Positions 51,469-52,198 of a stretch of DNA of 64,000 nucleotides are shown in pieces. The notes beneath the pieces are model-generated. The model made no database searches and had not been told where the DNA came from. It saw only the letters and a list, made by a program, of their open reading frames with translations. This DNA comes from Alistipes sp. (lineage in GTDB: Bacteria; Bacteroidota; Bacteroidia; Bacteroidales; Rikenellaceae), in contig JAJQCA010000046.1 in the NCBI GenBank assembly GCA_021202985.1, positions 19,217 to 83,216 of the forward strand, given 5' to 3'. The first letter of the stretch is position 1. The number at the start of each line of letters is the position of its first letter. The position numbers and the translations under genes were made by a program.

Positions 51469-51476
51469 TATATTTG
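51469..51476 (+). promoter_or_regulatory. -7 promoter element TATATTTG upstream of leader RNA copy 3
   Basis: TAnnTTTG match about 10 nt before the first conserved helix. Confidence 0.5.
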
Positions 51477-51484
51477 CGTTATAG

Positions 51485-51685
51485 TAATAAGGAAACAACC
51501 TTTATACCTATAACAAAGTGAGCCCTCCCTGCTTAGGGGAGATTTGAATACGGTATAGGAGTTGTCAGTCCTTGTTATGCCCCGGCCTCAGCGCCGGGGC
51601 ATGGCTTGGGCGTGGCGACGACTTTCGTATTCACGGGTGGCTCACATCCCGGTTGTAGGAGGTCGAACCCACGCCCTTTCTGTTT
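51485..51685 (+). ncRNA. Structured leader RNA, copy 3, upstream of family member C
   Basis: Helices AAGG/CCTT, GTGAGCC/GGCTCAC, CTCCCT/AGGGGAG, GAATACG/CGTATTC, GTTGTC/GACGAC, ATGCCCCGGC/GCCGGGGCAT, pseudoknot GGGCGTGG(51608-51615)/CCCACGCCC(51668-51676). Confidence 0.82.
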
Positions 51686-51712
51686 TTCAGGAAGGGCCCT
51701 GAATCTCCGCTT

Positions 51713-52198
51713 ATGGAAGAAGAACTGAGGGATTTCAACCCGTTTAACGGCCGCCTCCCGTTATTGGAAGTCTATCACACGTACAGCCGGAGTCATTGGG
51801 ATTGGGAGCTGGTGGAGGAGTATGAACCGGGCGAAGTGCTGTGGGTGTTTTACATGGATAACATCTACATAAACCGCAAGGGCTGCGTCTGGTACAACGG
51901 CAGTGTAAAGGGGTTCGACCGGGAGCGCCCGGAACTGGAGGGCCGGTTCACCTACATACCCGAAATCAGCACGATGAAAATTGTCATTCCCCATCCCCCC
52001 GAACTGCGCGAAGAGCGGGATATATGGAATGCGGACGAGTACGAACGGATATATCTGGTCTACCTACCCGAAGACGACACGGTAAGGTGCACCGACTTAA
52101 ATGCGCGCGGGCCGAATGTGCTGTACGTTCTCGGAAGGAGATACCGGCGACGGCGGGAACCGCAAATATTACCCGGGGAGGAAAATACAGGCTGGTAA
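51713..52198 (+). CDS. Lipocalin-like orphan protein, family member C (161 aa)
   Basis: 'EYEPGEVLWVFYMDNIYINRKGCVWYNGSVKGFDRERPELEGRFTYIPEISTMKIVIPHPPE' aligns by pattern to member A. Confidence 0.75.
   Translation: MEEELRDFNPFNGRLPLLEVYHTYSRSHWDWELVEEYEPGEVLWVFYMDNIYINRKGCVWYNGSVKGFDRERPELEGRFTYIPEISTMKIVIPHPPELREERDIWNADEYERIYLVYLPEDDTVRCTDLNARGPNVLYVLGRRYRRRREPQILPGEENTGW

What the first reader, a model, noticed from the sequence alone, without database searches (positions are those of the whole stretch)
51469..51713. Leader RNA copy 3, on the opposite strand and 14 kb away
After TATATTTG (51469-51476): AAGG/CCTT hairpin, GTGAGCC (51518-51524)/GGCTCAC (51639-51645), CTCCCT-GCTT-AGGGGAG, GAATACG (51546-51552)/CGTATTC (51626-51632), GTTGTC/GACGAC, ATGCCCCGGC/GCCGGGGCAT, pseudoknot GGGCGTGG/CCCACGCCC. 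Recurrence at a separate locus and on the other strand argues for a functional cassette rather than a local duplication.
Basis: seen in the sequence. Interest (0 to 1): 0.88.

Follow-up and report, generated by a model that had tools for sequence, protein, structure and literature searches.

The report
Switch-like leader RNA of gut Rikenellaceae
This is one of a large, previously uncatalogued family of knotted RNA switches, about 195 bases long and several per genome in Alistipes-like gut bacteria, that sits in front of small unknown proteins and transcription regulators and probably decides whether the gene behind it is read.

Summary
Window 51486-51679 (+) carries a ~195-nt RNA with seven helices and a pseudoknot; copies 1 and 2 (34199-34008 and 37523-37332, minus strand) share it at only 61-69% identity. 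A covariance model finds 8 strong and 3 divergent copies in the parent genome. Copies occur in 44 of 150 Rikenellaceae genomes, up to 16 per genome. A pattern scan of 85,488 species genomes hit only Alistipes/Rikenellaceae-type records. Rfam 15, phage records and viral contigs give nothing.

Over 112 copies, 50 of 54 core pairs show two-sided compensatory changes and 93% of cells pair. That extended helix shares both 5' segments with conserved helices P5 and lower P6. This is the layout of a terminator competing with an antiterminator.

Downstream genes vary (orphan lipocalin-like proteins, HTH/S24-like, AraC, YpsA-SLOG, NYN), so the RNA is best read as a cis-acting transcription attenuator, riboswitch-like, ligand unknown. 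The RNA family and its competing helices are shown by sequence. Termination and ligand are inferred.

The parts
51469..51476 (+). Bacteroidota-type promoter -7 element (TATATTTG)
   Evidence: Sequence. A TA-N(1-3)-TTTG motif lies within 110 nt upstream in 92 of 121 copies against 7 of 121 in a control region.
51486..51679 (+). Structured RNA, copy 3 (the finding)
   Evidence: Covariance model hit, 166 bits, E 2e-39; 137.5 bits with the broader model R2.
51488..51505 (+). P0, 5' hairpin AAGG/CCTT; its 3' side runs into the conserved ACCTTTATACC
   Evidence: helix 1, 93.8% paired.
51503..51508 (+). pk2 5' strand TATACC, pairs with GGTATA at 51552-51557 (second pseudoknot)
   Evidence: Unbiased covariation, two strongest pairs z 16.9 and 9.9; 93.9% paired in 112 copies although not part of the model.
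51507..51514 (+). P1 5' strand CCTATAAC, pairs with GTTGTAGG 51652-51659
   Evidence: 10 of 10 pairs covary in the family (helix 2).
51518..51524 (+). P2 5' strand GTGAGCC, pairs with GGCTCAC 51639-51645
   Evidence: 99.8% paired, all pairs with two-sided changes (helix 3).
51525..51541 (+). P3 hairpin CTCCCT-GCTT-AGGGGAG
   Evidence: helix 4.
51546..51552 (+). P4 5' strand GAATACG, pairs with CGTATTC 51626-51632
   Evidence: helix 5; 7 of 7 pairs covary.
51561..51566 (+). P5 5' strand GTTGTC, pairs with GACGAC 51617-51622 (putative antiterminator)
   Evidence: 86% paired; the GUUG strand is nearly invariant and tolerates G-U.
51577..51602 (+). P6 hairpin ATGCCCCGGC/GCCGGGGCAT; in the family it extends downward so that CC(C) pairs with the GGG of the pk1 strand
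   Evidence: helix 7 (95.5% paired); extension 96.1% paired.
51608..51623 (+). Shared strand: GGGCGTGG (pk1 5' strand) followed by CGACT (P5 3' strand); pairs either with the P5/P6 strands or with the 3' terminator strand
51661..51676 (+). Terminator 3' strand: GGTCG (51661-51665) and CCACGCCC (51669-51676), pairs with 51608-51623
   Evidence: Helices 96.2% and 85.4% paired, top covariation z 13.7, 9.5, 8.2, 7.7 outside the model's structure.
51677..51687 (+). U-tract (TTTCTGTTTTT)
   Evidence: 7.2 T per 10 nt after the pk1 strand over 121 copies against 25% background.
51674..51698 (+). Further competing hairpin with the U-tract in its loop (GCCCTTTCTG/CAGGAAGGGC)
   Evidence: Sequence; downstream complement to the pk1 strand at p<=0.05 in 46 of 152 copy rows, 7.6 expected; copy 3 itself is not significant in that ungapped test.
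51713..52198 (+). Downstream ORF, 161 aa orphan protein of the same divergent family as those behind copies 1 and 2
   Evidence: dN 0.27, dS 0.81 against the orthologue in a sister genome.
34008..34199 (-). Structured RNA, copy 1
   Evidence: 205 bits.
33527..33976 (-). ORF behind copy 1, 149 aa, lipocalin-like predicted fold
   Evidence: AlphaFold2 mean pLDDT 87.4; Foldseek nearest lipocalins, probability up to 0.99 but TM about 0.4 and no E below 0.001; dN 0.16, dS 0.93.
37332..37523 (-). Structured RNA, copy 2
   Evidence: 177 bits.
36691..37299 (-). ORF behind copy 2, 202 aa orphan

Best explanation
It is a cis-acting 5' leader RNA that works as a transcription attenuator, most likely riboswitch-like. 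RNA polymerase starts at the TAnnTTTG promoter and makes a compact core (P0-P6 plus pseudoknot pk2). A 16-nt strand in the middle (GGGCGNRG followed by the 3' half of P5) can be held in a local stem by P5 and lower P6, or be taken by a complementary strand made about 45 nt later, forming an extended helix directly followed by a U-tract, that is, an intrinsic terminator knotted onto the core. If the core holds the shared strand, polymerase reads through into the downstream gene; if the 3' strand captures it, transcription ends and a ~200-nt RNA is released. What tips the balance is unknown. Shown by sequence: the family, the core, both pseudoknots, the two competing pairings, the U-tract, the position before ORFs, and the lack of room for another promoter in many copies. 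Inferred: that the U-tract helix terminates transcription, which state is ON, and that a ligand is sensed.
For: Core: 50 of 54 pairs with two-sided changes, 93% of cells paired over 112 copies. Terminator helix and pk2 were not in the model used to align, yet emerge among the strongest extra covarying pairs with 96.2%, 85.4% and 93.9% of cells paired. The same nucleotides also pair with P5 (86%) and lower P6 (96.1%); partner-specific complementarity exceeds shuffled partners for both alternatives, z 12.3 and 4.8. A U-tract follows the terminator strand in all 121 copies examined, 5-9 T in 10 nt. Folding estimates put the two states within a few kcal/mol on average, -72.4 against -77.9 before any pseudoknot penalty. 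The AUG starts 2-50 nt after the RNA in many copies, as close as 2-5 nt in one genus, leaving no room for a separate promoter. Downstream genes differ but recur by type, and 17 of 34 HTH-family genes in 8 genomes carry the RNA within about 200 nt upstream, as expected of a portable regulatory element.
Against: No transcript data; termination is not shown. As plain nested secondary structure the core is about 15 kcal/mol better than a terminator fold that destroys P1, P2 and P4, so the terminator must form as a pseudoknot or kinetically. Pseudoknotted intrinsic terminators are unusual. A minority of copies have no recognisable ORF close behind, and some stand in tandem without an ORF between them. 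No ligand is suggested by the gene list. In the genus where the AUG abuts the U-tract, blocking of translation would look the same.
Confidence: 0.6

Rival explanations
1. The leader controls translation. The knotted helix formed by the 3' strand lies against the start codon or exposes/hides the U-rich region used for initiation in SD-less Bacteroidota; no termination takes place.
For: In one genus the AUG follows the U-tract by 2-5 nt. About 30% of copy rows have a further strand behind the U-tract complementary to the pk1 strand, before the AUG.
Against: In the window copies and most Alistipes copies the AUG is 30-100 nt beyond the U-tract, too far for direct occlusion, yet the U-tract and terminator strand are kept.
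Confidence: 0.17
2. A stand-alone small RNA acting in trans, with its own promoter and terminator; the downstream gene is expressed by leaky read-through and its identity is secondary.
For: Own promoter and U-tract; tandem copies without ORF between them; some copies without a downstream ORF.
Against: Same-strand ORFs of recurring types follow closely in most copies and, where tested, are under purifying selection. Conserved competing pairings are expected of a switch and are not needed for a plain sRNA.
Confidence: 0.12
3. RNA partner of the downstream protein, in the manner of type III toxin-antitoxin systems or of a protein that binds its own leader.
For: Same order of parts as ToxIN: promoter, structured pseudoknotted RNA, terminator-like element, small ORF. 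The commonest small ORFs (lipocalin-like) evolve fast behind a conserved RNA.
Against: The RNA also precedes AraC, HTH/S24-like, YpsA-SLOG and NYN genes. Half of the HTH family lacks the RNA. No short tandem repeats; predicted fold is lipocalin-like, not the ToxN fold; no PADLOC hit for the window ORFs.
Confidence: 0.09

Closest known systems
Transcription-attenuating riboswitches as a kind (for example large pseudoknotted classes such as cobalamin, or preQ1 classes with knotted expression platforms)
   Same: 5' leader position, conserved complex core, two mutually exclusive helices sharing a strand, one of them followed by a U-tract, recurrent regulated genes.
   Different: No Rfam family matches; no ligand known; the terminator helix is knotted across P1, P2 and P4 with about 45 nt between its strands; genes controlled are regulators and orphans rather than one metabolic pathway.
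Type III toxin-antitoxin loci (ToxIN, CptIN, TenpIN)
   Same: Promoter, pseudoknotted RNA, terminator-like element, small ORF.
   Different: No 34-40-nt repeats, unrelated and varied downstream proteins, RNA not obligatory for the gene family.
Candidate structured RNAs from microbiome surveys (PMC8040213)
   Same: Same kind of object; that survey's main text names one Alistipes leader, upstream of ribosomal protein L20 (49 bp).
   Different: That candidate is short and tied to L20. Nothing in the main text matches this RNA; its supplementary tables could not be read here.
Ribosomal protein leaders
   Same: Structured 5' leaders acting in cis.
   Different: No ribosomal protein gene was seen downstream in the copies examined.

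Membership tests
Riboswitch / transcription attenuator (kind) | Structured 5' leader conserved across species | tested here: met
Riboswitch / transcription attenuator (kind) | Two mutually exclusive conserved pairings, one with a U-tract | tested here: met
Riboswitch / transcription attenuator (kind) | Termination or read-through actually occurs at the U-tract | not testable with these tools
   Needs transcript 3' ends.
Riboswitch / transcription attenuator (kind) | Specific binding of a small molecule | not testable with these tools
   No ligand candidate from the gene list.
Any described Rfam family (4,227) | Covariance model match at gathering score | tested here: not met
   Searches (window, gathering; E-value mode) give no relevant hit over the RNA.
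Type III toxin-antitoxin | Short tandem RNA repeats cut by the toxin | tested here: not met
   Single ~195-nt unit; tandem copies, where present, are whole units 280-340 nt apart.
Type III toxin-antitoxin | Downstream ToxN/CptN/TenpN-type endonuclease | tested here: not met
Type III toxin-antitoxin | RNA obligatory for the gene | tested here: not met
   17 of 34 HTH-family genes have the RNA, 17 do not.
Ribosomal protein leader | Ribosomal protein gene downstream | tested here: not met
Mobile cassette (phage or transposon borne) | Found in phage or viral contigs, or at non-homologous positions in sister genomes | tested here: not met
   0 viral contigs, 0 phage records; copies 1-3 have orthologues in the sister genome.

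The most novel reading that the evidence does not exclude
A new class of ligand-sensing riboswitch, confined to one family of gut bacteria, in which a single signal sets the expression of a scattered regulon of transcription factors, SLOG and NYN proteins and fast-evolving lipocalin-like proteins through a pseudoknotted terminator.
Probability: 0.35. Interest if true: 0.82.

Novelty: new member of a known kind. Interest (0 to 1): 0.62.

Why it matters
Large, doubly pseudoknotted bacterial RNA classes are rare, and this one is absent from Rfam although it is present in several copies in many Alistipes-type genomes, which are common in animal guts. If it is a switch, it points to a signal that tunes many regulators at once. 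It also gives an unusually clear case in which covariation supports both of two competing folds, including the expression platform, which normally evolves too fast to show it.

Tried and rejected
Rfam: no match at gathering score in the window, no relevant hit at lenient thresholds. First genome pattern search missed the window copies because of a one-base spacing error, but found the fourth copy. Pfam, NCBIfam, PHROGs and PADLOC scans of the window ORFs: nothing meaningful. Protein homology search for the copy 1 ORF: only its own orthologue. Viral contigs and phages: none. Type III toxin-antitoxin considered for the part order and rejected on gene variety and missing repeats. A fully nested terminator that melts P1, P2 and P4: disfavoured by about 15 kcal/mol, so the knotted version is preferred. 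A hairpin GGU(U)/(A)GACC around the P2 3' strand covaries at one pair (z 11.5, 74% canonical) and remains unplaced. Literature searches found no description of this RNA.

Full report
Observation. The two other window copies are on the minus strand at 34199-34008 and 37523-37332. A fourth copy from another contig of the same genome fits the same fold.

Family. A covariance model from four copies finds 8 strong and several divergent copies in the parent genome and copies in relatives of the same family only. With a model from 103 copies, 44 of 150 Rikenellaceae genomes are positive, 14 of 22 genera, up to 16 copies in one genome. In 395 genomes of the order only the two members of the window's own genus were positive, at reduced sensitivity. 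A pattern scan of 85,488 species genomes returned 56 loci; all whose record names a genus or family are Alistipes, Rikenella or Rikenellaceae, and a few are labelled only 'Bacteroidales bacterium'. Viral contigs and phages have none. Rfam has no such family.

Structure. On 112 copies, 93.0% of cells of the 54-pair core are standard pairs and 50 pairs have two-sided changes; sliding the partner by one column drops the paired cells to 45-49%. These counts lean on an alignment fitted to the core. The following do not, because they were not in the model. Their cells are paired at 93.9%, 96.2% and 85.4%. Relatedness among copies is not fully removed by these tests.

Competing folds. The strand GGGCGNRG-GACAACU is used twice. 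In one fold its GGG pairs with CCC below P6 (96.1% of cells) and its GACAAC with GUUGUC of P5 (86%, with a nearly invariant GUUG strand that tolerates G-U). In the other the whole strand pairs with AGUUGU-N-CUGCGCCC, which is directly followed by a U-tract (7.2 T in 10 nt, every copy 5 or more). Complementarity is specific to each copy's own partner in both folds. Estimated energies of the two states differ by 5.5 kcal/mol on average before pseudoknot costs. This is the arrangement of an antiterminator and an intrinsic terminator. It is inferred, not shown, that termination takes place.

Context. A TAnnTTTG promoter element lies 17-60 nt upstream in most copies (92 of 121 within 110 nt, against 7 of 121 in control). 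An ATG ORF of at least 60 aa starts within 130 nt in about two thirds of copy rows (105 of 160, with some double counting of the same locus and a few spurious ORFs). Types that recur: orphan small proteins with a lipocalin-like predicted fold, HTH proteins with S24-like tails or fused to such a domain, AraC-type regulators, YpsA-SLOG, NYN. In 8 genomes, 17 of 34 HTH-family genes carry the RNA within about 200 nt upstream, counted by me from coordinates. In one genus the AUG follows the U-tract by 2-5 nt. Tandem copies exist: in the parent genome two full copies and a remnant in a row, each full copy with its own promoter element; in another genome three copies 340 nt apart with truncated duplicates of the ORF start.

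Age and selection. Window copies are 61-69% identical to each other but 91-97% identical to their orthologues in the sister genome, whose ORFs (copies 1 and 3) differ at dS 0.8-0.9 with dN 0.16-0.27. So the RNA is under strong constraint, the ORFs are real, and the copies are old duplicates, not a recent burst.

Verdict. A real, uncatalogued RNA family of Rikenellaceae (confidence above 0.95 on the computed evidence). Most likely job: cis-acting transcription attenuator, riboswitch-like, signal unknown (0.6). Filed as a new member of a known kind, because competing terminator and antiterminator helices in a leader are well known even though this RNA is not.

Noticed in passing
window 36-434, 22620-22669, 26187-26591, 31474-31983, 34306-36704, 50863-51407: Dispersed and tandem repeats with the core ACAGATTCTTCGCT(T/G)CGCTCAGAATGACAT on both strands fill many intergenic spaces, including the 600 bp just before the RNA copy 3 promoter.
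   Followed up: no
window 22734-22856 and 34546-34669 (related piece at 44784-44849): Repeat with a perfect hairpin GATACTTTTTGT..ACAAAAAGTATC followed by a conserved stretch GCAGCCTC..CTGCTGCGAG.GTCGGATGT, 11.8 kb apart (families D12 and D14).
   Followed up: no
window 42729-42774, 43287-43332, 43976-44021: Three copies of GGTAAGATTATCnAACC within 1.3 kb (family D13).
   Followed up: no
L074 10514-11218 (parent genome contig C74): One RNA remnant and two full copies in tandem, each full copy with its own promoter, only the last followed by an ORF.
   Followed up: partly
L140 3324-4203: Three tandem units of RNA plus the first ~25 codons of the ORF, with only the last ORF complete; looks like gene diversification by unequal recombination.
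   Followed up: partly
G000:C81:42742-43273 (L076 6743-6936 and downstream): RNA copy whose downstream HTH-type gene carries a stop codon, apparently decayed.
   Followed up: no
alignment A12 columns 263-266 with 275-278: A covarying hairpin GGU/ACC encloses the 3' strand of P2; it may be a further alternative fold or a kissing interaction.
   Followed up: partly
L034 1501-1695 and downstream (G011 contig C39): RNA followed by a YpsA-SLOG gene and then, about 640 nt from the RNA, a gene of the HTH/S24-like family, suggesting one operon behind one leader.
   Followed up: no
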